DNA of 64,000 bases, taken from the NCBI GenBank assembly GCA_015501585.1, contig JADNRY010000004.1, positions 496,001 to 560,000 of the forward strand, given 5' to 3'. Shown one piece after another: positions 9,721 to 46,943 of this stretch (its first letter is position 1; every line of letters begins with the position of its first letter). Source of the stretch: Rhodocollybia butyracea. Lineage: Eukaryota > Basidiomycota > Agaricomycetes > Agaricales > Omphalotaceae. The notes under the pieces were generated by a model. That model saw only the letters and a list, made by a program, of their open reading frames with translations, was not told the origin of the DNA and made no database searches. A program made the position numbers and the translations under genes.

Positions 9721-10553
9721 GGCAACCGTCTATCGGGTCTAGCAGCATTGGCCCAACCTTGTAGGACTATGTAATCGAACCAGGGGGGTACGCACCCGAG
9801 TATTCCCAGTCGAGCAACCAAACGCGATTGTTGTCATCGAGCATGATGTTACGCATATTGAGATCATTATGGCAAAAAACTAGAGGATTTCCAGTACCTG
9901 CTAGCTGTGGGAATTTGGGTGACTTCCACAAGATTCCCCATCCACGGTGTAGTCGTACCTGGTGGGAGTAGAGTTGATAGTCAAACCAAACGACAAGCTC
10001 TTGATGATTTTTTAATGGACCAGCACCCACTTGGGGGAACTGTGTACCCCTACAGAGAAGGGATAGCCCGGTACCATCAAACGGTCCAGGTATGCCGGGG
10101 TTTGGTAGTGGAAGGCTCTTTACCTGGTGAATATACCACCAGAGAGTACACATGATGCACAACTTGCGCCAGATGCTCAACGTTCGCCAGCAATGTACCA
10201 GTGTCTGTCCAGAGATAAAATCCATTACTATCCAGTGTCTCGAAGGATCCTTACGGTCCAGCAAGACTTTTCGAACGCGGGGGATTGGAATACTGGTACG
10301 TTCCGCCACATATTGCATTGTGAATGCCTCGTGCTGCTCTGGGTATCGAACTAGCTTGGCTACAGCATCAGGAGCGATGCGATACACCTGTGCAGCGCCA
10401 ATAACGTCAAGATCCTTGTCATAGCCAACTAACTGTTCATGTTGTCTTCCTGCGATAATTAGCTCGTACACATCGGTCATCGGTAAGTTGGTCGATGGAA
10501 GAAGACGGTGGGACGTTAGAGTTTCTAGTACGGAATGACAGAACCTGGCCCAT
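9721..10553 (-). pseudogene. Aminoglycoside phosphotransferase-like (APH/choline kinase fold), copy 1, frameshifted
   Basis: The main frame (10480-9767) shows the APH-type core: a nucleotide-loop-like N-terminus (AAQVYRIAPDAVAKLVRY), WIVMDFISGQTL, then the Brenner/DxD block FCHNDLNMRNIMLDD followed by WLLDWEYSGAYPP. In this fold the HND aspartate is the catalytic base and the later D binds Mg. By comparison with copy 3, the original start (MGQVLSFRTRNSN) lies at 10553 but is out of frame because of one extra base near 10463. One base is also missing after GAYPP near 9784, which ends the frame early. Downstream 80 bp (9640-9720) is shared with the flank of copy 3. Substrate unknown; fungal members of this fold are numerous and mostly uncharacterised. 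Confidence 0.65.
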
Positions 10554-13172
10554 TTTGTGAACAGATGGCTAGTGATGGTGGTGAGGCCAGATGTAGTTCA
10601 ACCCACACATATCTGTTCGTGACAATAGATCTTTCCCGCGAATTTTGACGTAATTTTAATCGATGCATCAATGTGGCAATTAGGCCTAAAACAGACCCCT
10701 CTAGGTACACGGCCAGACGCTCAGATGCGCTTGGTTTATCTGCCGGCCGCAGTGCCACACATCAATCTTATTTTTGACCTATTCTTTAAAAAATTTAACC
10801 CAAACTTCAAACAGCGTAGATAGCACTAGAACGCAAATTTTATTAGTTTTACACTTCAGCGACCACTTGGCTGCACCTGGGACGAACCCTCCACGCTCAT
10901 CTGTCATCATTCCAGAAGCCAAACGACCACGAGACCGCTTGCACGTGTTGGCTCGTGTTGGTTCATCGCCGTCGCTTTCTTCATGAGTCCTTCTCTGTCC
11001 TTCTTCCTTCCTCTCCTTTGCATTCCGATTCCGAATTTTCATGGCCTTCTTCAAGCTTCACCTTTCGATTCATTCGAGTCATGCAAGTGTTCAAGCCAGC
11101 AAGTAGTTCTCAAGCATACAGGCTCAAGAATCAAGATACAAATATGTAACACTAACGTCCTTCAAGTCAACTTCAAGTCATGATAGCTTCAAGAAATTAT
11201 TCAACACGTTCGGAGAACGACTACAAATAGTAATATCCAAACCCTTCAAGACACTCAAGTATCTCAATATCTCAAGGCTTCCCTTCCAACCTTTGAAGTG
11301 AGGTAGGTTTTTTCGCTAATTTTTCATCCTGTGGATCAAAGCAAGGTAACTCTGTTTTCTTCTTTGCATCGTTGGTATGAATATGCCGCACAGCGTTTGT
11401 GCAGTACGACTACAGATAGCATAGCTAGTAGTGTGCAATACAATATATATTCTTTTGGCTGCAAACTATCGGGGCACTCGGAATAAGAACCGGGGACAAG
11501 CGGAATAGGATTTGGAAATAATCGGAAAGGCACATCACGTTGTAACAGCAATTGGTCCCAGAGACGATCCGTTTGCTTCCTGGGACTGATTTGATCCCCA
11601 GTACTGTTGCTCACTTTGACCCTTAGCATCAAAACAATAAAGCCACGCACCAGCGGCTTTGGGTTCAACTCAGTTTAATAGATTGGGCTAGCTGTGTAGT
11701 GGTAGTGGTAGTATAACCGACGTGGTCCCATAGGTGATGTCGAAAATCAAGAAACCTCGTAAAGCGGAAGCAAATTTACGAAGAGATTGTCGGGAAAGTC
11801 CCTGAAAGTCCTCGTTCAAGCATCGATGACTACAGATGTTACCACATCGACGGCCCGGCCCCGGAAAAGATCCTAGCCCATTTCCGGATATTCCTCGTAC
11901 TTAGTTGCGAGGGACAAGCGAGGGATCTCTCGGTTGAGGTTAACTCTTTCGGCAATCAAGGGCTTCATACCTCAGCAAGCGGGCCTACAGTCAATCGAGC
12001 ACGACGCGGTCCTTGGGTACGAGATTACTTCGTGCCACCCTGTACCAGGCCCTCCATCATATCATTCATGATCTGGGCCTCAGTGAGCGCTATCAGCTCG
12101 ACCCTACTACTGGGAGTGGATGCATCTATTGGTGTTACGGCCATTGACGCCTTTACCTCTAAAGGCTGGATTGCTCAACGAAGCTCAGCCCAGGTCTATT
12201 ATTTGGCCGCAGGTATTCGTCAGGAGAGGCACTATCTTGACATGCCTAAACAGGGTGTGCATTCTATTAAGTTTACTATTAAGAGCAACTTAAGTACTTA
12301 GTAGAACTCTTCTCCGAACATTAGTGTCGTTCAAGCTACCTCCTTAAAGACTTGTTGAACTCGCCTTAGACTTACCGTCTCTATTTATCAGCTTATACAC
12401 CTCTCGGACTTGACAAATTTGGAAGCAGTGTCATGAGGACAAAATGTTTTTGACAATCAAATCACAGATAAACAAGCCGACGAATACGTCAGGAGATTGG
12501 AAGAGATTGGATCATTGATGTCACGTCTTATCGACGCGTCGCGTAAATGAATACGATTACGGACAGAGCTAGACAGAGCACTAGCCTGCTCCTTCGATCT
12601 ACTATAAAAGTCGGGAAAAACCCCTTGAATTCTACGGAATAAGTAATTTTGGACAGATAGATAGAGAGAATATAATTGATTGAATTTGTCCTCATTTGCT
12701 GTTTATGCATCATAAGTCAGAGGCTAGCAAAGAGATCTGGACTAGATACTGACTAGATACGACTGTTCGCAGCTGTCCGCCTCGCTATTCACTTACATTT
12801 CCACGCCGCGCCTGCTTCTGTTCCCGCCACTGCCCCCATTTCCTCCTACTAGCGCTCATAAGTGTCTCCCACGCTCTCGTCGCACCACTCGGCTACTACT
12901 CGTCGCCCCGCCTGTTTCGTCTATCCTTATATTCCTCTCACCACTAGTTACTCGCCAAGAGTCACTTCCGCCCACACTCCCTATTACGCCTCTGACTACT
13001 ATTATTCCCGTTTAACTAGTACTCATGCTTATACATGTAGATTGCACTTACAAGTAATACTTACTCCTTGAATACGAGTTGTTTGTCCGGAGTACACCTT
13101 CGAGGAACGTACTCACAAGTTCCACAACATCTTTGAGTATGTTAGAGAACCCTTTCCAGTAATGAGGATAGA
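10554..13172. other. 2.6-kb stretch without a recognisable gene
   Basis: Several short open frames exist on both strands (for example 11336-11668 minus, 12032-12301 plus), but none shows a domain or consistent splicing. 11080-11290 is rich in CAAG/CTTCAAG motifs; 12780-13020 is strongly C/T-biased on the plus strand. From about 13105 the flank of APH copy 2 begins. Old transposon debris is possible, but I see no diagnostic motif. Confidence 0.4.
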
Positions 13173-17165: not shown

Positions 17166-17171
17166 CCCACT
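17166..17171 (+). repeat. Target-site duplication, left copy (CCCACT)
   Basis: CCCACT directly precedes the left terminus TATGCTG. The identical hexamer directly follows the right terminus at 25940-25945. Keeping one copy and removing the element gives the minus-strand codons for PTSGGHFNP, the conserved sequence around the first NPA box. Confidence 0.9.
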
Positions 17172-17406
17172 TATGCTGTTCAGAAGTGTGAATAAATACA
17201 TAGTCAATTTCTCGCAAGTTGTTAGTCAATTTCTCGCAAGTTGTTCATCAATTTCTCGCAAGTTGTTCATCAATTTCTCGCAAGTTCATTTTCTCACAAG
17301 TCCAATTTCTCGCAAGTTCAACTTTTCCCACATTTTCTCGCAAGTTGTTCTTCATTTTCTCGCAACTTCCGTTCATTTTCTCGCAACTTCAAATTTTCAC
17401 ATACAT
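17172..17406 (+). repeat. Left terminal inverted repeat built of a minisatellite
   Basis: After the unique tip (TATGCTGTTCAGAAGTG) the repeat consists mostly of the unit aatttctcgcaagttgtt with spacers, iterated roughly nine times with variants. It is matched in inverted orientation by 25705-25939. Long open frames through it are by-products of the repeat. Confidence 0.9.
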
Positions 17407-17771
17407 TTTCTCACCAAAGCCTCTGAAAGCCCGTAGTACTTATCTTTACACTTCAAGTAATTGATTAAACCAAGTAAACTAAACTAAAAGGCAACGAGCA
17501 ACTGTCTAAACTGTCCAGTAAATATGCATAAGAAGTAGACTAGGGAAGGTTCAACGATTAATAGACTAGGTATGGATTGAAGCCGGGGGAAGGAGAAGCT
17601 GAACGAGCGTATCTGAATGCAAAGATCGTGCAGGTAACTGCAGCTTCGTATGGTGAGTACAAAGCGGATATGAGTAGTGAAAATGAGCGAGATTGAACTG
17701 TTGAAAGTTCAGGAATCAGTGAACGCTGTCCAAGGCATATTTGTAAGTTATAAGAAAGGCAAACGGAGCCC
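17407..17771. other. Non-coding subterminal region of the transposon
   Basis: No gene seen. It holds the 3' flank of the gene ending at 17772. A minus-strand open frame (17558-17788) overlaps that gene's end and has no domain. Confidence 0.5.
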
Positions 17772-19508
17772 TCAAAAATTGAAGTCAATGGGTTTCGTCC
17801 CCCAAGTTGTGTACTGGTGGCTATACACCTTGTAATCTGGACTCCAATGGTCAGATCCTGGTGAAGGCGCTGCTTCTGGAGTCATAGGACGGCTAGCGGC
17901 ACCATCGTTCTTATCACTGGAGCCACCATCTGAGCCAGCAGCATCATCTGTGGCCCCACTTGTGCCGGGAGCATCAACAGGCTCTATATACGAAAGATGA
18001 ATTATGACGATGGCTTGCCTGAACTAAGAGAGCATACTGACCTAATGTATCATCTTCGTTGTCAGAGTCAACGGTTAGATCCAAGGTTTCTGTGAATAAA
18101 AAACCAATGAGACATTGAAACAACCGCCCCCGTTGGCTACGAAACTCACCAAGGATGACTTTTTGCTTCTTGCGTGGATGAATCGGTGATGGATCGGGCG
18201 AGCTTGTCAAATGTGTTACCACTTCCTCTTCAGAGCCAGATGACTCTATGCGAGCACGTTTTCGACTGTTTCGAACACTTCTGCGAGGCACAGGAGGGCT
18301 AGTTCCCCTTTCTGAGGGATCATCTCTGCCGCTGTCATCGGGATGCTGTGTAAGGATATCGTCCCAGCCATCTACTTCAATGATTTCGTGTCCATTCTTG
18401 TCTACAGCATTCTCTGCCAATGCCTTGAGGTCTTTAGGATTAATCGCTGTACGTGATGCTGCGTTTATGGTTCAGTGAACAGACTAAAGTCGTTGTAATG
18501 ATCGACTTACTAAACACCAATACAGATCCTCGCCACCCTGCAGTGGGTCTCCGAGAATATTGCCGAGCAGCGTCACCGTTAGGAATAGTAAGGCCGGTTA
18601 GTTGAATACGGCGGTCTTGGCGTGTGCATAAAAGAACAGAGGGTCGTCCTCTCAAATCATTTTCTCCTTCTTCCATCAAGAGCTGAATCGCTGGAAGCTC
18701 CTCTACGAGTTTCTCGAGCACCGTTTCCTTGTCCCACACCATATCAAACTCAATCCCAGTGGTAGAGTTGATCACTGCAAGACCTTGATTCTGATACGCC
18801 CGGAGAGAAACCAAGGTAAGGATGTGTGTGCCGTTGACTTTCTTTGGGAGAGCAAAGTAGCGACTTCCCAGCTGGACAGCATGGGCCGCAGCGGCATCTT
18901 CGTTATCCTACAACATAAGAGCAAGAGGTGAGAATTTTGTTTGTGAAACCATATAATACACATACAACAGCGATAATGCCTTCAGGTAAGCAAAGGATTG
19001 ATTCCACCAAGAAGGTAGTACTTTGAGCCTTCTACGAGAATAAGCAATTGGCCGTATGAAAAAACACTTATGAAAGACTTACTGCCTTTCCTTTGCCCTT
19101 TTTAGAACCAGAGACACGTCTTCCCCCTACCATCTTGGATGGCTTCTGCTTGGGACGAAGTCCGCGTGACATTTCTGCCTGAGCTGTAGCATACTCGTCA
19201 TCACTGTCTGGGATAGTTTCAGGCTTCACAAGCAGCTTGTTGGTGGTCAAGCTGTTAATGAGAGCATCGGCGTCCTTGTCTTCAGTAAACTTTCGAAGCT
19301 TATTCATAGTCAAATGTGAGTTTAAAACCTCTGAGTCGGTACTTTCGTCCTTAGCGTCGTCGCTGGGAGGAGCAAGTGGACCACGGCCACGATGGCCTTT
19401 GCGCCCTGTGGAGTTCCGTGGTTTGGGGCTGTTCTTGTGATAAGCACTACTGGTTGTTTTTGTGGAGAGCTGTTTTCTCCGATTTTTTAAAGGGCCGCCT
19501 GTGCCCAT
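17772..19508 (-). CDS. Transposon-borne uncharacterised protein (charged, nuclear-type)
   Basis: Minus strand, start MGTGGPLKNRRKQ at 19508, end WGTKPIDFNF at 17772, with about five introns. The N-terminal 145 residues are basic and acidic by turns (STGRKGHRGRG, PDSDDEY, KKGKGKA). The middle part is compact and hydrophobic enough to fold (DAAAAHAVQLGSRYFALPKK, LRAYQNQGLAVINS, WDKETVLEKLVEELPAIQLL, LCTRQDRRIQLTG). The C-terminal third is low-complexity and acidic with an SRKRAR-like basic stretch that could be a nuclear localisation signal. I do not recognise a domain. Its position in the element, same strand as the dioxygenase and transposase and 178 bp after the dioxygenase stop, suggests a role in transposition, DNA targeting or in partnering the dioxygenase, which is inference. 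Confidence 0.65.
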
Positions 19509-19685
19509 GTTAAGTCAAGAAATGAAAGAAAGGAAATGTGTGATGGCGTGGGATTTGTTAAATTGAACCTTTAGACCTGGAGTCCAGATCATAAACCTTT
19601 TCGAGCTCACAGAGCTGAATGAGTGTTTAATTCACCAGTATATACTTATAGCTATTTCTAATTACAAAGTACAAGTACGAACTAA

Positions 19686-21530
19686 CTAGTTACCCTTCCA
19701 GTTACCTGCTTGAATATCAGCCCATTTTGAGAACTTACGCAGTCCGCTCTCCCACCTCTCTCGTCGCTCAGCGTTGCGTTTCGAGCGTTGAGATGCAGTA
19801 GCATGAGCCTTGAAACGAATGTCGCTTCGAAAGCCGTTCTCGACCCAGCGGAAAAGTCCTGCAGAGGAGTATTGAACAAAGGAGTAACGCTCCTCGCCAG
19901 GAGCAACGGGGACATTGGAGTGCACAAGGAGAGCTGAAGGGATAAGGATGGTTGAGCCTGGCGGGAACCTGATGTAAAGCCCAAGGTCCCAGAGTATAAG
20001 ATGCCCTCCCCGCGTGTAGTCAAACTTGCCCAAGGCCGTGATGGAGCACCAGCCAAAGCAAAGGTTTGCAGCGTCGACATGAGGGAAGGTGATGGATTGG
20101 GGGCCAAAATTGATTGTGCATGCTGCCCATGCGTTGTTTCGAAACAGACGACGGAGGTTTGGATTCCACTCAAAGAGCTTATCCAGATTAGCTGTGCAGT
20201 AGATATAGCACTGATATGCGTAAGCCATGAAAAGGGCTAGTGTTTACATCAGGGTTTTGCCAAAAATTGAAGGCTAACACTCACAGTTGGCGAAGCCAGA
20301 TATCCGTGCAAAGCAGTTGAGGCTGAGGAGGGCAGACATGATGCCGAATGCTGCTGCATTTGTTTGCTTCAAATTTCCTGGCTCCTAGGGAAGGAGTTAG
20401 CCAAGAACAATCTGTGAAGAGCGAAGGCTTACCTGCGGTCCTCCCCCAAAACTCACGCCGAAGGCAACGGCGGGACAGTCAGCACGGCGGTGGTTCGTTT
20501 GCTTTTCGCTGAACGTCAGATCCTTGCGAGCTTCCCGAATGGCTTCGGTGGCCGGCTCGTTGACTGTCTCCAGCCAGTTGGTGTCTTGCGGGTTGCCGCC
20601 AACAACCCCGGTAACAACACCGTCGGAATCGAGAAGCGCGTATGTTTGTCTAAACGGAGGCTGATGAGATGTAATAACAATATAAGCTGAAGAAACACGC
20701 ACCCAGATTCCGCAACAAACTCAACCAGTCCTTGCGCCTCAAGCTCTGCAGCCGAGCTATGAACGCGGTCAAGCTCCTGCTTTTTTCCCGTGTAGCCGCC
20801 TGAGCCGATCTGAGCGTCCTCCGTCAGAGAAAAGCCCTCCAGTGTGAGCGACGCTGAGGACAGCATGCGTTGCTGAGCATGCTCAGAGACCTCCCGTTGT
20901 CTATCCCCAGCCTTTTCAGCACGAAGAAGCTTCCGTTTCTCGCGATTTTTGGAATCCTTGGCCACGTTCTTCTCCTTCTTGGTGCGATGAGGGCCAATCT
21001 CGCCGCGTAAGCCAGCCGGAAGAGGCTGGAACAAAGACGGAGGCTTGGGAACGAGGTCAAGGAGGGAGCGGTACGGCGAGGTGTTACCCACGGCAGGATT
21101 CACATGAGCGAGCGGGCCATTGAGCTGAGAAGCGCGTCTGCCGTTGGCTTGGGAAGTGGATTCGGGGCTGAGGAGGTTTTCCGACTGGAGGCTGGGCAGG
21201 CTGTCGACTTCCGGGTTGTCCTGGAGATCGGTGGACATTTCGGCCGCTTCCTGCGCACGTATCTGCTCCGAAAGTCGTTCTGTAAGCCTGAACGGCCTCC
21301 TGGTGTGTACAGGCTCCATAGCCTGAGCTTTGAGTCCGTCGATGCCCCAAGGCGAGTATTCGCGTCCAGTTCGTGTCCCTAAGAAGCATCGTCAGAATGT
21401 TGCGCAGCTAATAGGATACACGTAGATGTTCTCCTGGTGTTGAGCGAAAAGCTCGATGCCCCAAACGCAAAAGGCTGCCAACAGTTTGGCTCCAAAGTAG
21501 GACCCTCCCTGCCAGCGCCACCCATTGCAT
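19686..21530 (-). CDS. TET/JBP-like 2-oxoglutarate/Fe(II) dioxygenase (fungal transposon type)
   Basis: Minus strand, about five exons. The N-terminal 250 residues are low-complexity with a Lys/Arg-rich segment (KKEKNVAKDSKNREKRKLLR). The catalytic double-stranded beta-helix follows: GVSFGGGP, an intron, EPGNL...LNCFARISGFA, then FGPQSITFPHVDAANL with the HxD iron ligands (H at 20079-20081, D at 20073-20075), GKFDYTRGGHLILWDL, FPPGSTILIPSA, the distal His in LVHSNVP (19920-19922) and the 2-oxoglutarate-binding Arg region EERYSFVQYSS, ending with a basic tail. This layout is that of the fungal TET/JBP family, whose studied relatives oxidise 5-methylcytosine or thymine in DNA. All metal and cosubstrate residues are present. 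The start is uncertain: ATG at 21530 plus an intron (GTGTAT...TTCTTAG) joins in frame to GREYSPWGIDG; a later Met lies at 21319. Activity is inferred, not shown. Confidence 0.8.
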
Positions 21531-22212
21531 CTGGGAACATATAACGAGCATACAGACACACAGGAAAGAAAGAACAGAGAGATAAAAAAACCATGCTTAC
21601 CCATGAGAAGAAAAGGAGGCCGTGTTGTGGTTGTAGTTGAAGGTTGAAGAGAGAACAGTCAACGTGATTGCCTGTAGCGCCCGATGTCACCTGATGTGAC
21701 AGCGCGTGCACTCAGAACGAGAACAGCGACACAATCGCCTTATCATGACTGGCTCGGCCGCCCCACCTTTTTATAAACATTGGAGAGCAACCGTTGAAGG
21801 TTGTGCTAAATACTTTCGCTGAAGATCTAGCCATCTAACTTTTTCACTGCCATATTAACTAGAAAATGATGTTAGTAAAGTAGGTACATAGAATATTTGC
21901 ATTCAGAATGTTTGGCCACTGCAAGAATAAGTACTCAAACTTAAAAAAGAAATGAAGAAATAACTATTGAAGTAGAAAAACTACTTACTGTGCACAGAGG
22001 CTTCATTAATGCCTTTGTCTCAATACAATACCAAGGCCGCCTCAGCTTGGGTTCAAACCAACGGCTTTCAACGAATGGCATCGGCGTAAGATTGCATAAC
22101 GACGGTCAGTAACCTCCAATCCCTCGGTACAATTGAGAGCTTTGCAGAAAAGCTCAGGTGTGTTGGCAGTCTCACAGACGAGAGCGGAAAGCAGGTATAT
22201 TCAACAACCAAA
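21531..22212. other. Transposon interior between dioxygenase and transposase genes
   Basis: Contains the presumed promoter of the dioxygenase gene and the 3' flank of the transposase gene. A/T-rich around 21830-21990. No additional gene recognised; an 89-codon plus-strand frame at 22158 is antisense to the transposase C-terminus. Confidence 0.5.
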
Positions 22213-24260
22213 CTACTGAGACAGACGATCCCTCAGCTGGTCCATTAAATAAAGTCCCTGCACCCATCGAACAGAACGAGGCCTCCACACAGAGTCCGGT
22301 AGCGCAATCTCGAGCCTCTTGCCACCTTTTCGACCAGACCGTATGGCACCAACGGCGGGATATCCGTTGCTGTCCCACTCGGAATGATGAATGCCAAAGC
22401 CTAAAGGAATCTGCCCGCTTTCATTGAGGCGAGCCAAAGCTACTTCAAATAAACGGCGCGTCCGGTCGTTTTGGAAAGGGTCGTTGTGTTTGGGAGCCTC
22501 TATAACGTCCTCGTTGAACTCGTTTTCATCCTCTCCCTCTACCATGTTTATCAGGTCCTCCAACCTGTTGCCTTCAACCCCCCTCGAGCTATCCTCATCT
22601 CTGATTCCAAGCCATTCGCTACTCTCATCCTCACTGTCAATGCCCATCCATTCAGACCCGTCGTCTATTCCAACTGACTCACTCTCAGATTGTTCCTCCT
22701 CCGAGGGATGACCTGCGCCAGTTTGATGGGCATGTCTTTGCGCTGGCTTCCCATGAACTCCGTAAAAGCGTCTCAAAAGACTAGGGTCAATTCCAGGACA
22801 ATCCTCGTATGCTCCGTGATCCAGCTGACCGAGAAAGAGCAGGTCCTAGGGAAAGATGTTTCGTTGAGTCTTACTAACAGTTACAAATAGAAACAACCTA
22901 CGTTAGGGCTTCTATCATGGCCTTCCCCTGAGATAGGATGTGCATTCCAATTCTCAGCAAACTCTTCACAGTCTTCGTTAATCAGATCAAGGAAAAGAAA
23001 ATGTAAAAGCCAAAGATGAAACGTGTTCTTTCGGTCAAGCCCGTGGAGTTCTTCAAGTCGAAAAAAGAATGCCCGCCAGGCACGAGCAAATTGAGAACCA
23101 ACTTCGACCCACAACCGCTCTATTCGAGTGTTGTGTGTTGAAGAGCCCCAAATAAAGCTGGCTCGGTTTCGTCCCCGTTTAATGATGAGAAGGATTGACA
23201 CTAACTTGTTTTCCCAGCCACGATCTCCTCGAACACGGGACGGCATCCCATATTTCCTGACGGCAGCAAGAAACATGTGCAAAACCGTGGAAGGACGGTT
23301 GTTCGTATTAGCACGGAGCCCAGTAATCTACGTACGCTGTGTTAAAAATATGTCAAAAAGAAGCAAACAAACACCTACAGTTCGGGAATACCCATCCACA
23401 CACCCATGAATGACAATGCCCCAAAGAATTAGCTTGTGGTGTCCATCAATGTGCCAGAGATAATGTGGCCTGGATACGCTATATGGATTCCGGATAATTT
23501 TATTTTTCTTTCGTCGACGAAGCGACCGTCCAAGCTTATCGACACGGTCAAGTGACTCGGTGATTCGACGCTTCTGAAGCCTGAGACCTTTGCGGCAAAG
23601 GTACGCTGTTAAGTAGCGTATGCTACTGGGTTTTTTTCCTTGGTAGTTCTTCACCAGTTCATCAAGGTCATCGTTCGTGATTGTTGAGAAACGATGGTGA
23701 ATATTATGCTCCTTAAGCCGTGCTTCAAGAGTCTGGCGATGTACCTTCAGTTTCCTTGCCAGCTCTGCAACTTTGATACGACGCTTAGGATCCATAGCAG
23801 ATCTAAGGAATTCCGGGTCAATGGACTTCTTTGGCCGACCACGCTTTCCGGTTTGTTGGGATAAGACAGGATTGACACTAGAGATTACACGCGTAGATTC
23901 CCTGTGATCATGCAATAGTATTTGTAACTAGAAACAAGGTTGAATACAGAGGTCGTACCTGTCGCCAGTAGCTGCCTTTGCTTGATCCAATTCAACCAGT
24001 ATACGTGCAAAATGGTCAGACACATCATAAATCCATTGTAGCGGTATCTCTTCATCATGAGCTGCCTCTTCGATCTCCAAAAGCAATGGTATTGCTTCTT
24101 CGAGTATTGAATTTTGGTGCTGTTTTGCCTGATGTAGATTATAGTTGCCTGAGGCAAGAAGTGCAACCGGTCTTCGATACAACTCTCGCAGAAGAGAGTT
24201 GGCTTCATATACGTTTGATGACCATGGTGTAGCTCGTCGAGGAAGTGAGGGTAGAGACAT
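22213..24260 (-). CDS. DDE integrase-core transposase
   Basis: Minus strand, four main exons from MSLPSLPRRATPW (24260) to DQLRDRLSQ (22213). A helical N-terminus is followed by an AT-hook-like KRGRPKKS and a helix-turn-helix (VAELARKLKVHRQTLEARLK). The retroviral-integrase-type catalytic core then follows. The three acidic residues are in WHIDGHHKL (D codon 23445-23447), RGDRGWEN (D codon 23223-23225) and RIERLWVEV (E codon 23118-23120), with 34 residues between the second D and the E, as in DD34-35E enzymes. The intron at 23329-23381 (GTAGGT...CGTAG) joins GYSRT to ITGLRAN. The last exon is acidic (SESESVGIDDG, NMVEGEDENEF) and ends with a basic KKGGKRLE-like patch and VRWVQGLYLMDQLR. It should cut and join the element ends. 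The frame is intact. It starts 117 bp from the divergent BTB-like gene. Confidence 0.85.
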
Positions 24261-24377
24261 TCAGATCTTTAGAACATGGAGGTAAGGAATAAATATTATG
24301 TAAAACAAATAGGTTGGGAATTTCGCTTATCATCCATCTATCGTTCCTCTTAATATTTCCTATCTGTTCAAATCTCT

Positions 24378-25427
24378 ATGACTCTTCCTGTTCACTACGG
24401 CAGTTTTGAAGAGCTTAATGCTCACTTAAAGCATCAGAAACAAGAGTGGAACCTCGTTCCTGAGTTCTGCAAAGACGCTGCTGTAGTCCTTATACGAGTA
24501 GGTTAAGTTCTTTCAAGCATGGATTGAACGTTCTAACATTGATATTTCAAGTCAGAGGATAATCAGGTCTTCAGGATTAATTACGAAACACTCACAGCCC
24601 TGGCAGTGGGGCTAAAGGAAATCCTCAAGCTTCCTGACCCTACAAATGGGCTTCTAGGGACGGAAGTTAACCCGATTCTTCTGCCAGGAAAGCCTTCTGA
24701 GATTGTTCTTTTCCTTAAATGGATCCAACACCCGTGAGTAGCCTGCATTTGATTTAATAATACTCTGTCTTCATCGAAATACTGTAGCCACTGGATGCCC
24801 TTGGACTTGACAGAGTCGGAGCTGTTGAGCTTGTATCTGTTTGCAGACCAATGGATTTGTGAACCTGCTACGGATTGGGCTCTTCAGCGAATCGAGGGCC
24901 TTGGGTTGGGAGCTTCCAGAATGCTTGGCCTTGCCATTACGCTTGGGGTACGCCGATGGGTTGAGCCGGCACTTCAACAACTCTTCTATATCCCGATGTA
25001 TTCATTGTCAACTTCGGAAAGGGACGAGATTGGATCCGATGCCTTCGCAGTGATCTCTAATGCACAACTCTTACTCTCAGACCAACGTATGTCTCGTGCC
25101 GCATGCCCACCCCCTATGGCCAACGTTGGGTTTGGCATGAAAGGGTGCAGATACTATGGTATTTTACATGAGAAATCAAGATGTGCTCGGGCCTGGGACC
25201 ATGGGTGGAAAGAGATAGGTTTGAGATTCATCCACCCAGAAGAACCGGTCCACCTTTCACAGGCCATGTGGTATATTCGAGGCCATCCGTTCAACGGGGT
25301 GTCGGAGGAATGCAGGATTGCCACTATCGAAAGTCTTCCGCCATTTTTCGAAATCGAAACGCAGATCTATCAGCGTGCAGTCAAGAGGATTGGTGAACTT
25401 ATCCGCATGTCCCCTTATTCAGTATAA
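24378..25427 (+). CDS. BTB/POZ-like protein carried by the transposon
   Basis: Three exons from MTLPVHYGSFEEL (24378). The introns restore VVLIR/SEDNQVF (GTAGGT...TTTCAAG) and WIQHP/HWMPLD (GTGAGT...CTGTAG). The N-terminal 130 residues have the fungal BTB pattern: DAAVVLIR..DNQVFRINYETLTAL, a short acidic/hydrophobic spacer, and a later LFLKWIQHP followed by a helical region (LSLYLFADQWICEPATDWAL). BTB domains mediate dimerisation and adaptor contacts. The C-terminal half (WYIRGHPFNGVSEECR and onward) is not recognised. It is the only element gene on the plus strand and is divergently arranged with the transposase, so the two may share a promoter region. Why a transposon should carry it is unknown; targeting or regulation of expression is possible. 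Confidence 0.65.
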
Positions 25428-25704
25428 ATCTCAAACAGGTGCTTCCAACTCTGACCACTGCATACGTGAAGGTGTTCTCTGTCGTTCCCTCCCCATCCTT
25501 CCTTCCTAGCCTTAAACGTGTACACACTGCTTCATCACTCTTTAATACTCCCTTTGCATCTATTGGACGTATCTACTACATAACCTAATACTCTTTCGCT
25601 ACTCCCTAATACCCACTCTCTTTTACAGTCGTTAGATCTATCTAACTGCTTGATACATATAATGGTCATAAATTGAAGTCTTCAATGTGCATGTAAGAAA
25701 CATC
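25428..25704. other. Right subterminal region of the transposon
   Basis: No gene. C/T-rich 3' flank of the BTB-like gene leading into the right inverted repeat. Confidence 0.5.
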
Positions 25705-25939
25705 ATGTATGTGAAAATTTGAAGTTGCGAGAAAATGAACGGAAGTTGCGAGAAAATGAAGAACAACTTGCGAGAAAATGTGGGAAAAGTTGAACTTGCG
25801 AGAAATTGGACTTGTGAGAAAATGAACTTGCGAGAAATTGATGAACAACTTGCGAGAAATTGATGAACAACTTGCGAGAAATTGACTAACAACTTGCGAG
25901 AAATTGACTATGTATTTATTCACACTTCTGAACAGCATA
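25705..25939 (-). repeat. Right terminal inverted repeat
   Basis: Inverted counterpart of 17172-17406 with the same minisatellite units (cttgcgagaaattgatgaac on the plus strand), ending in CTGAACAGCATA followed by the target duplication. Confidence 0.9.
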
Positions 25940-25945
25940 CCCACT
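25940..25945 (+). repeat. Target-site duplication, right copy (CCCACT)
   Basis: Identical to 17166-17171; see the left copy. Confidence 0.9.
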
Positions 25946-30614: not shown

Positions 30615-31510
30615 CTAGTAATGATGATAGATTAGACTATGGTTCCCGGCGATTATCGGAATGAAGATCCGAAACAGCCTAGGCAACCGTCTATCGGGGT
30701 TAACAGCATTGGCCCAACCTTTTAGGACTGCGTAATCGAACCATGGGGGGTACGCACCCGAGTATTCCCAGTCGAGCAACCAAACGCGATTATTGTCATC
30801 GAGCATGATGTTACGCATATTGAGATCATTGTGACAAAAAACTAGAGGATTACCAGAGCCCACTAGCTGTGGGAATTTCGGGGACTTCCACAAGAGCCCC
30901 CATGCACGGTACAGTCGCACCTGGTGGGAGTAGAGTTGATAGTCAAACCAAATGACAAGCTCTTGATAATTTTTCAATGGACTAGCACCGTTGTCTGGAA
31001 ACTGTGGACCCCTACAGAGAAGGGGTAGCCCGGTACCATCAAACGGTCCAGGTATGTCGGGGTTTGGTAATGGAACGTTCTTCGCCTGGTGAATATACCA
31101 CCAGAGAGTACACATGATGCACAACTTGCGACAAATGCTCAACATTGGCCAACAATGCATCAGGGTCTGCCCAGAGATAAAATCCATGACTATCCAGTGT
31201 TTCGAATGATCCTTGCGATCCGGAAAGACTTTCCGTACGCGAGGGATTGGTATGCTGGTACGTTCCGCCACATATTGCATTGTGAATGCCTCGTGATGCT
31301 CTGGTATTGAACCAGCTTGGCCACAGCATCAGGAGTGATGCGATACACCTGTGCAGCGCCCATAACATCGAGATCCTTGTCATAGCCAACTAACTGACCG
31401 CGTTGTCTTCCTGCAATTAGCTCGTACACTTGGTCGTCGGTAAGTTTGTCGATCGAAGAAGACGGTGAAACGTTCGAGTTCCTAGTACGAAATGACAGAA
31501 CTTGGCCCAT
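30615..31510 (-). pseudogene. APH-like kinase, copy 3, one frameshift
   Basis: The most complete copy. The start MGQVLSFRTRNSN is at 31510, then DKLTDDQVYELIAGRQ, AAQVYRITPDAVAKLVQY. A one-base deletion near 31292 then shifts the frame, which resumes as MQYVAERTSIPIPRV. The catalytic half is intact: WIVMDFISGQTL, LVFCHNDLNMRNIMLDD, WLLDWEYSGAYPPWFDYAVLKGWAN, ending at 30615. With the shift corrected by comparison to copy 1, the family protein would be about 298 residues. Downstream 95 bp match the flank of copy 1. Confidence 0.65.
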
Positions 31511-45011: not shown

Positions 45012-46625
45012 TCAAATTATTAAACGTGCACCCCATTCGTTAGTACCACCAACCACTACTCTCAAACCCTCTGCATCTAAAATCCGAAGTGGTTTATAGA
45101 TGTCCGCATCAACTTCTCGTGAAGTAAACTGAAGAGCAACAGATCGGATACAGGCCCTCCCCTCCACAGATAAATCCGAACCAGGTTTAAACCAACGCGA
45201 TTCAACCATGCTAACAAAACCAGAGTCGTTGAAATCAGTAGATGCAGATCTCAAATAAAGGCTGTGTAATTTTGGAACCAGAAACGTCGAAGTGCTTGCT
45301 AGGCTCGCGATGAGATACGAAGTGATTGCATTCTGATTATGTGGATACTGGTCAACCTCGAGATGAAGTAGGGAGGGCATGACTTGGAGGGCTGTAATAA
45401 GTTCCGAATCAAGCATAGATATACCGCGTAGTGTGAACGTGGTGATCATACAGGATGATCTGAAGATGAATGAAGCAAAAGCATTGGCGGACCAGATGAC
45501 GTGGGTACCAACTACCCTAAGCTCATTCAGGGAAGGAAAGTTGAAGGAGGAAAATACTGTATCTAGTGACGTTCTAAGTGTGAGCGATAGGATGTTACGC
45601 CATGTGCCCAGTGCGCCTTCTCCTTCGGCAGGGGGCGTATGCCGCGACCAGCAGCTCAACTCAAGAGATTTGAGAGAAGGGCAGCTGTGAAGAGCTTCCG
45701 ACAAACTTGTCGGGACCGAGCCATGATAACTGAGATGATCTAGTTGACTGTAGAGAAGCTTCGCTGTTGGTCCCAGTGTGGACTGGATGGTGGAAAGTGC
45801 ACAGAGTTTCGGGCAATAGTTGAAACGATCCAACTCATCCCCTCTGGCCCCTCTGACAATGTCCAGTTCTGCAAGTATAGGAAAACGCAGTTGATGGAGT
45901 ATGCCGTACGCCATTAATGAGTAATCTCCTGCATACTTGAACGCTTTCCAACGACAAGCATGCTGCGTGAGATGGATTAGGGAAGGAACCTCCATAGCGT
46001 GAGATGGCCCCTGTATACTAAGTGCAAGCCGTATTGGTGAATCACCCGATCTCTCCAGATATAGAATAACCGTATCAATGAAACCAATCAAGGCTTCTGC
46101 TTCACCCCAGGGAGTAGTGTGTATCTCCACTGTTAGGTTTGCCCACAAACTAGGTGTCGACAGTGCAAGTTCGCGCCAACGAGAACATACGGAGCTAATT
46201 GCCATCGTAGGAAGGTAAGTGATATAGGGAGAGGTAATTATAGTGGGAGGACTTCCGCCCCATTTCGACCACGGATAGCTCTGGAGAAGATTTTCCTCGC
46301 ATACGTGCTGGAAGATGCGCAATAAAATTTCATTTGGCAACTTCCGCACTGGCGAGAGTAAAGAGAGTAGCTTGGCTCTTTGTGTCCCAAGCCGTTGGTT
46401 TTGTCCTCGAAGAAATGTGATTTGCTCTGTGAGGCTGGCCACCTCCAAATCATGATCTTCGATATCTTTGTCGGCCAGAGCCACTATTGCCCTGAGCTCC
46501 GTTGCTCGTGTCGGGGTAACCACGAATGGTCCAAATTCAAATCGAAGATCATTATCCAGTGCAGATAGTTCCTCAGGGCTGAGGTTTACACGTACCCGCA
46601 AAGGCTTCAAACAAGATGAGGTCAT
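45012..46625 (-). CDS. F-box-like protein with leucine-rich C-terminal half
   Basis: One uninterrupted exon of 537 codons, start MTSSCLKPLRVRVNLSPEEL (46625). A coiled-coil-like segment (residues about 50-95, DKDIEDHDLEVASLTEQITFL) is followed by an F-box-like motif VRKLPNEILLRIFQHVCEEN (about 93-112) and a W-containing SSVCSRWRELALSTPSLWANL block. The second half is a series of leucine-rich segments (LKSLELSCW, LNELRVVGTHV, SLLHLEVDQYP, LHSLYLRSAS). This is the standard layout of the expanded agaric F-box family, in which the F-box would recruit SKP1 to an SCF ubiquitin ligase and the LRR-like part would bind a target. Targets unknown. Lack of introns contrasts with every neighbour. Confidence 0.85.
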   Translation of the reverse strand: MTSSCLKPLRVRVNLSPEELSALDNDLRFEFGPFVVTPTRATELRAIVALADKDIEDHDLEVASLTEQITFLRGQNQRLGTQRAKLLSLLSPVRKLPNEILLRIFQHVCEENLLQSYPWSKWGGSPPTIITSPYITYLPTMAISSVCSRWRELALSTPSLWANLTVEIHTTPWGEAEALIGFIDTVILYLERSGDSPIRLALSIQGPSHAMEVPSLIHLTQHACRWKAFKYAGDYSLMAYGILHQLRFPILAELDIVRGARGDELDRFNYCPKLCALSTIQSTLGPTAKLLYSQLDHLSYHGSVPTSLSEALHSCPSLKSLELSCWSRHTPPAEGEGALGTWRNILSLTLRTSLDTVFSSFNFPSLNELRVVGTHVIWSANAFASFIFRSSCMITTFTLRGISMLDSELITALQVMPSLLHLEVDQYPHNQNAITSYLIASLASTSTFLVPKLHSLYLRSASTDFNDSGFVSMVESRWFKPGSDLSVEGRACIRSVALQFTSREVDADIYKPLRILDAEGLRVVVGGTNEWGARLII

Positions 46626-46943
46626 CGGGGAGAAGTGCTTGTTCGAATAAGCGCCACAACTGAGCTAGTAGGCGCCTTTCACGCTGTATTCGTCTTTCTG
46701 GGTTATGTTGACTACTCTAAACAAACGTTCCGCACAAAAGATTTTGGATGTAAAGCCTATTTCTTTCGGCTTAAGTAGAGGACTTGACTAACTAGCTTGA
46801 CTATATCAGAGTTGTCCACTGTTTCCCAAGTGGTCGTGGCAATCTCAGTACGAGTTCCAATGGTCAGCGTGCTGACGCGTACACTTGGCAACACAGTAGT
46901 ACCATTCGATAAATATCGGGCCCCGTTTGAAGAAAAACTAGAC
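46626..46943. other. Promoter region of the F-box gene
   Basis: 318 bp between the F-box start and the end of CorA-like copy B, both on the minus strand. No gene seen. Confidence 0.5.

What the first reader, a model, noticed from the sequence alone, without database searches (positions are those of the whole stretch)
17172..25939. A four-gene DNA transposon carrying a TET/JBP-like DNA-base dioxygenase and an integrase-type transposase
Seen: precise 235-bp inverted repeats, a 6-bp target duplication, an intact HxD...H dioxygenase with fungal TET/JBP sequence signatures, and an intact DDE transposase of the WHIDGHHK type. Known: fungal TET/JBP genes are expanded in Agaricomycetes and have been linked to KDZ-superfamily transposons, whose transposase is unrelated in sequence to this one. 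Inference: this is a separate transposon lineage that has captured, or co-evolved with, a DNA-base-modifying enzyme, perhaps to counter cytosine-methylation silencing of its own promoter or ends.
Basis: partly seen in the sequence, partly recalled or inferred. Interest (0 to 1): 0.95.

Follow-up and report, generated by a model that had tools for sequence, protein, structure and literature searches.

The report
Mushroom transposon carrying a DNA-demethylation-type enzyme
A jumping gene in a mushroom genome carries, besides its own cutting enzyme, an enzyme of the family that strips methyl marks off DNA; similar combinations were published in 2025 for rusts and a truffle, but this one is a different version, and its older sister copies show the kind of damage that such methyl marks cause.

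Summary

TET-carrying IS3EU elements are already published (Kojima 2025), in rusts and Tuber with other TET types; none was listed in Agaricomycetes. So the kind is known and this variant looks new. The dioxygenase core is under purifying selection (dN/dS 0.05-0.14 between diverged copies). Two decayed copies show C-to-T changes 32-56-fold enriched at CpG. Best mechanism: the transposase moves the element, and the TET enzyme oxidises 5mC on its own CpG-methylated copies, delaying silencing and decay. No enzyme activity was tested. IS3EU-dioxygenase linkage probably arose twice here, among KDZ-linked relatives.

The parts
17166..17171 (.). target site duplication CCCACT, left copy
   Evidence: empty site with one copy at C1248
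17172..17406 (+). left terminal inverted repeat, 235 bp, starts TATGCTG; nine sub-repeats of the type TTTCTCGCAAGTT, eight with CpG and one with CpA
17772..19508 (-). gene G1, 485 aa, six exons (19508-19083, 19031-18966, 18907-18511, 18458-18150, 18089-18042, 17983-17772); function unknown; all nine contigs with a G1 match also have a dioxygenase match
   Evidence: gene model; genome search; dN/dS 0.14-0.20 between diverged copies; no Pfam or PDB match beyond chance
19686..21604 (-). TET/JBP-type dioxygenase (DIO), 544 aa, exons 21604-21601, 21508-21422 (5' end uncertain), 21378-20703, 20649-20433, 20384-20285, 20236-19686; HxD, distal H, R intact; Asn five residues after the first H
   Evidence: structure match of P0001 to CcTet
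22213..24260 (-). transposase, 627 aa, exons 24260-23959, 23901-23379, 23327-22902, 22845-22213; PF24764 integrase core, D253/D310/E345
   Evidence: (PF24764 E 3e-63)
24378..25427 (+). divergent gene, 313 aa, exons 24378-24497, 24552-24733, 24788-25427; looks BTB-like to the eye but no domain match was found
   Evidence: no Pfam or PDB match beyond chance; dN/dS 0.14-0.19 between diverged copies
25705..25939 (-). right terminal inverted repeat, 235 bp, perfect reverse complement of the left
25940..25945 (.). target site duplication CCCACT, right copy

Best explanation
This is an autonomous-looking DNA transposon of the IS3EU/GingerRoot type in an Agaricales mushroom, most likely Rhodocollybia butyracea. 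Shown: complete ends, a 6-bp target duplication, a matching empty site, open genes, a TET-like fold of the dioxygenase, purifying selection on the genes, and CpG-specific decay of sister copies. Inferred: the DDE transposase binds the CpG-containing terminal sub-repeats and moves the element. The dioxygenase oxidises 5-methylcytosine on the element's own CpG-methylated DNA, so that new copies stay expressible (and perhaps their ends usable) for longer before methylation silences them and deamination destroys them. G1 and the divergent gene are retained helpers of unknown function.
Confidence: 0.66

Rival explanations
1. The dioxygenase acts at transposition itself: oxidised bases made at the CpG of the terminal sub-repeats tell the transposase which ends to use or when, so the enzyme licenses movement and does not mainly restore transcription.
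For: Each 235-bp end holds eight CpG-bearing sub-repeats and one CpA unit; in 13 MITEs 130 of 146 units keep CG. In the decayed copies C628 and C444 the matching units of the ends are 16 CG with 2 CA, and 15 CG with 2 CA and 1 CC (the window has one CA in each end), while interiors lost 10.5% and 6.0% of CpG bases.
Against: MITEs keep transposase sites by selection anyway; 5 of their 146 units read TG. The numbers at the ends are small (about 3 losses expected in C628, none seen; an unplanned comparison, and units changed outside the searched pattern would be missed). C1183 has no unit of this pattern. No transposase-binding data. Transposase relatives occur without a linked dioxygenase.
Confidence: 0.12
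2. The enzyme is TET-like in fold but its substrate is not 5mC of the element: 6mA, thymine, RNA or a protein; it serves some other need of the element.
For: Sequence identity to solved TETs is only 14-18%. CcTet itself takes 6mA as well, and CMD1 makes a different product (PMC12730594 section 3.4; PMC11040006 passages).
Against: The Asn at HxD+5 is at the position of the residue that blocks 6mA in TET2. CpG-specific decay suggests that the relevant mark exists on these copies.
Confidence: 0.15
3. The dioxygenase is a passenger or host-serving gene that spreads through the genome on several transposons and acts on all methylated repeats alike, without special benefit to this element.
For: The family is large (1,053 hits at E<=10 among 7,999 scored candidates) and in this genome is found beside IS3EU, beside KDZ and with neither. 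In C. cinerea and L. bicolor oxidised 5mC is found on retrotransposons too (stated in PMC12730594).
Against: Same order and orientation with the transposase in nine near loci, and with G1 in eight; purifying selection together with the transposase over long divergence.
Confidence: 0.2
4. Chance neighbourhood or assembly artefact: a host dioxygenase between unrelated repeats.
For: The assembly has single-base indel noise in copies C545 and C444.
Against: Perfect ends and duplication, an empty site, and all four genes at eight of the nine loci that have both transposase and dioxygenase, the ninth cut by its contig end.
Confidence: 0.01

Closest known systems
TET+ IS3EU transposons of Pucciniales (rusts), PU-type TET (Kojima 2025, PMC12730594)
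   Same: IS3EU transposon with TET/JBP gene, long inverted repeats, TA..TA termini, 6-bp duplication
   Different: rust elements end TAYGG..CCRTA (here TATGC..GCATA); all TET+ IS3EU of that paper carry an alpha-kinase gene opposite the transposase with the TET gene between; no kinase match in the four proteins here; different accessory genes
TET+ IS3EU of Tuber indicum, PE-type TET (Kojima 2025)
   Same: IS3EU with a TET/JBP gene
   Different: PE type has HxE; this one has HxD
TET+ Kyakuja/Zisupton (KDZ) transposons of Agaricomycetes, AG-type TET, CcTet (Iyer 2014 recalled; Kojima 2025; CcTet structures)
   Same: TET-like fold closest to CcTet; relatives of this dioxygenase lie beside KDZ matches in this genome
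   Different: transposase unrelated; AG type keeps Gly/Ser331 and Asp337 of CcTet, here Asn and Cys at those spacings
VANC anti-silencing proteins of Arabidopsis VANDAL transposons (PMC10398659, abstract and outline)
   Same: proposed role: an element-encoded protein lifts DNA methylation; targets are tandem repeats in non-coding parts
   Different: VANC is described as a sequence-specific binding protein that induces loss of marks; here a presumed enzyme; no homology claimed

Membership tests
IS3EU/GingerRoot superfamily | TA..TA termini | tested here: met
   TATGCTG..CAGCATA; definition from PMC10045372 (passages)
IS3EU/GingerRoot superfamily | 6-bp target site duplication | tested here: met
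   window, C628, C1183 and ten other insertions exact (13 of 33 printed pairings, which include false cross-pairings); four more pairs differ at one base; L030 and the C444 pairs do not match
IS3EU/GingerRoot superfamily | integrase-type DDE transposase related to reference IS3EU transposases | tested here: inconclusive
   PF24764 E 3e-63 and animal relatives; reference Repbase proteins were not at hand, so no tree with them
TET/JBP dioxygenases | double-stranded beta-helix with HxD...H and R, closest to TET structures | tested here: met
TET/JBP dioxygenases | match to Pfam Tet_JBP (PF12851) | tested here: inconclusive
   DIO none; 21 of 84 relatives at E<=0.1, best 1.1e-4; P0214 3.3e-8, 33.4 bits against cut-off 34.9, though the database lists PF12851 for P0214 and P0285; own genome four weak matches below cut-off, three of them DIO relatives
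TET/JBP dioxygenases | oxidises 5mC (or thymine) in DNA | not testable with these tools
   no biochemical data
AG-type TET (Kojima 2025) | Gly/Ser and Asp at the positions of CcTet 331 and 337 | tested here: not met
   Asn at +5 in 71 of 75 rows, Cys at +11 in 72 of 75, by spacing from HxD
PE-type TET (Kojima 2025) | HxE in place of HxD | tested here: not met
   HVD
PU-type TET (Kojima 2025) | conserved residues of the rust group | not tested
   no rust sequence at hand; the figure with the alignment is not held
KDZ transposons | KDZ transposase (PF18758) in the element | tested here: not met
   no PF18758 match at C716:513172-521939; the matches on this contig lie at 580660-581297

The most novel reading that the evidence does not exclude
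A fourth type of transposon-borne TET (HxD with the TET2-like Asn, without CcTet's Gly/Asp pair) moves between unrelated transposon superfamilies in mushrooms. In IS3EU it forms a stable four-gene unit that fights CpG methylation-linked hypermutation, with the CpG sub-repeats of the ends as the sites that must stay readable.
Probability: 0.35. Interest if true: 0.75.

Novelty: new variant of a known kind. Interest (0 to 1): 0.55.

Why it matters
Whether transposon-carried TET enzymes really protect their transposons is open; Kojima 2025 states that their function is not experimentally validated, and a 2026 review repeats it (PMC13297926, passages). This genome offers a natural test: an intact element with a matching empty site, close but decayed sisters whose damage is mostly CpG C-to-T, and related dioxygenases linked to two unrelated transposases. 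It also extends TET+ IS3EU to Agaricales with a dioxygenase outside the published AG and PE types, and it suggests that swaps between superfamilies happened in mushrooms with HxD-type enzymes too.

Tried and rejected
Led nowhere or rejected. (a) DIO alone against Pfam and PDB sequences: nothing. The profile of 84 relatives against PDB: chance matches only. The TET assignment therefore rests on the fold and on weak Tet_JBP matches of relatives. (b) The BTB and G1 naming: profiles of 4 and 3 copies found nothing in PDB, and Pfam scans of the members nothing beyond chance, so 'BTB-like' is by eye only. (c) Whether transposase and dioxygenase share contigs in other species was judged only by equal contig lengths in the capped lists, read by eye, with none seen; this is weak. 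(d) My first last intron of DIO was wrong and was corrected with P0001; two searches were run with the earlier 529-residue version. (e) KDZ origin of this element: rejected. (f) Hypermutation in a mushroom as a novelty: rejected, since CpG-biased hypermutation is reported for Tricholoma matsutake and Rhizoctonia solani (PMC6980582, PMC4014442, passages).

Rows dropped: three short rows (C1027, C335, C772) in the first dioxygenase tree, and four more (C1094b, P0091, C444, P0080) in the second. External rows: 22 of the 93 hits in the dioxygenase trees (24 chosen, two lacked the motif used to trim); 70 in the transposase tree out of 78 tried (120 listed of 151). Own-genome dioxygenase rows: 53 loci, of about 70.
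Full report
What is there. The window lies in a 95.6-Mb assembly of 1,381 contigs. The species was not given. Protein P0001, annotated as Rhodocollybia butyracea, matches the dioxygenase at 95% identity over 52% of the query and comes from a contig of 92,843 bases, the length of contig C545 here; P0002, same species, comes from one of 251,887 bases, the length of C1083. I therefore take the host to be R. butyracea. The element runs from 17172 to 25939, with 235-bp inverted repeats that are perfect reverse complements and a CCCACT duplication. A 236-bp query made of the two flanks with one CCCACT matches C1248:7461-7696 at 100%; C683 matches 198 bases of it at 86%. The C1248 match is an empty site, either the other allele or a duplicate, so the insertion was precise and is young relative to that copy.

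Genes. On the minus strand, in order of transcription, lie transposase, dioxygenase (DIO) and G1; a fourth gene diverges from the transposase on the plus strand. All are open with GT..AG introns. The 5' end of DIO is uncertain. The transposase has PF24764 at E 3e-63 and catalytic D253, D310 and E345. G1 and the divergent gene match no family beyond chance.

Copies in the genome. All four genes were found at C716 (the window), C545, C628, C444, C312, C977, C1183 and C1083; C1208 has three and is cut by the contig start. C628 and C444 share their right flank at over 99%, so they may be one insertion on two haplotypes; against this, their left flanks do not match beyond the repeat itself. C703 and C1366 have transposase and divergent gene but no detected DIO or G1 in the roughly 2 kb left before their contigs end; they share left flank letters and may be alleles. 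In the transposase tree they sit inside the DIO-bearing clade, which speaks for loss or truncation. C554 ends with its contig and cannot be scored. C866 has the transposase and none of the others in 7 kb. Near dioxygenases without a transposase match occur at C1206 (8.5 kb read), C524 and C954. By eye, most of the more distant transposase loci have no DIO hit nearby; both lists are lower bounds.

Ends. A survey of fetched loci printed 33 pairings of ends, including false cross-pairings. In 13 the six flanking bases agree exactly (window CCCACT, C628 CCCGAG, C1183 GCCGCC, C1294 GTCGAC and nine copies of about 0.85-1.1 kb); in four more, five of six agree; L030 and the C444 pairings do not. TA..TA termini with 6-bp duplications are the published signature of IS3EU/GingerRoot (PMC10045372, passages). 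Reference IS3EU proteins were not at hand.

Relation to KDZ elements. PF18758 gave 144 matches in the genome and none inside the element. By coordinates, 12 dioxygenase relatives lie within 5 kb of a KDZ match. In a tree of 72 rows, IS3EU-linked dioxygenases fall in two places: a clade of ten rows with the window copy (eight IS3EU-linked, two unlinked; SH-aLRT 100), and C436/C557/C1316 (98), inside a clade of eight with KDZ-linked C506 and C1268 (98; inner branches 83-87). With seven of 75 rows left out in all (68 rows), holding all ten IS3EU-linked rows together is rejected (AU p 0.0013 against the KDZ-linked rows, 8.6e-8 against all). The second group is decayed (YLD for HLD in two, Cys for the R in two), has no delimited ends, and may be few independent copies; at C436 the gene order is DIO then transposase, the reverse of the window. 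The transposase tree agrees: the near clade (9 rows, SH-aLRT 100) is far from C436/C557, and its nearest outside relatives are from Tetrapyrgos nigripes. I read this as probably two associations of IS3EU with this dioxygenase family in one species.

Selection. Between diverged copies the dioxygenase core has dN/dS 0.05-0.14, its N-terminal part 0.09-0.30, transposase exon 3 0.03-0.07, the divergent gene 0.14-0.19 and G1 0.14-0.20. dS is above 1 in most pairs, and several pairs are saturated and give no value. The near pair C716-C628 is less constrained (0.37 core, 0.59 N-terminal part, 0.43 transposase, 0.21 divergent gene over 72 codons, 0.96 G1), as expected of a decaying copy; C628 has two stops in the compared transposase exon.

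Methylation-type decay. Against the window copy, C628 lost 80 of 759 CpG bases by C-to-T or G-to-A but only 6 of 3,199 other C or G bases; C444 44 of 739 against 6 of 3,183; 37 sites are shared, so much of the decay is common to both. C545 lost 1 of 759 against 2 of 3,196. Changes the other way, CpG in the copy and TpG or CpA in the window, number 16 and 12. All four genes are affected; rates are 0.131 at TCG, 0.129 at ACG, 0.078 at CCG and 0.065 at GCG in C628. The right flank of C628/C444 has no substitution in 1,244 aligned columns, and the dioxygenase pair C1206/C524 has 17 substitutions in 1,691 columns, all at CpG (15 transitions, 2 transversions). In ten MITEs 13 of 74 CpG bases vary by transition against 15 of 373 others (p 1.2e-4). 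CpG methylation with deamination is the plain reading; similar patterns are printed for other Agaricomycetes.

Mechanism and novelty. The best reading is in the field above. It is the anti-silencing hypothesis of Kojima 2025, for which this genome adds selection and decay data. His paper lists Kyakuja, Zisupton, EnSpm, Plavaka and Helitron2 as the TET+ lineages of Agaricomycotina, with no IS3EU, and says that the AG type shows no transfer between superfamilies while A. bisporus PE-type genes suggest some. I read its introduction, methods, sections 3.2 and 3.4, the first of two parts of the discussion, figure legends and found passages; its supplementary tables were not read, so a family listed only there could be missed. 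Searches of the held library listed no other title on TET in IS3EU of mushrooms; of the 35 papers with the word IS3EU 20 were listed and I opened two. Iyer 2014 is not held and is cited from recall. Hence: new variant of a known kind.

Noticed in passing
L094 (C904:20500-29500) and C533, C1094:86827, C25, C561, C642, C158, C663, C1008, C855, C992, C495, C1216: A high-copy relative of the dioxygenase (13 close rows in one clade) with no IS3EU or KDZ match nearby by coordinates; in the one 9-kb stretch read, no transposase was recognised by eye among the ORFs. What moves it is unknown.
   Followed up: partly
L032 and L007 (C628:305906-316424): The C628 element seems to sit inside an older relative whose ends are followed and preceded by AACGAT: a transposon nested in its own kind.
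   Followed up: partly
L034 (C1294:6800-16790): A 9.5-kb unit bounded by the same ends with duplication GTCGAC but none of the four genes by tblastn; its ORFs include repeated ones that look GIY-YIG-like by eye.
   Followed up: partly
L032 375-543 and 8881-9181; L033 339-500 and 8808-9110: In decayed copies the CpG of the terminal sub-repeats shows no loss to TG or CA beyond the window's own CA, while the interior lost 6-10% of CpG bases; about 3 losses were expected in C628, an unplanned comparison.
   Followed up: partly
L031 (C545) and L033 (C444): Many single-base indels against few substitutions, perhaps assembly noise; frameshifts in these copies may not be real.
   Followed up: no
L048 (C557:31100-34600) and C1316:204212-207028: Transposase pieces lie on both sides of the dioxygenase on opposite strands, possibly one element inserted in another.
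   Followed up: no
window 9767-10597 and 30615-31328 (minus): Two APH/choline-kinase-type phosphotransferase ORFs, PF01636.
   Followed up: no
window 45012-46664 (minus): A 550-residue ORF with an F-box-like domain, PF12937.
   Followed up: no
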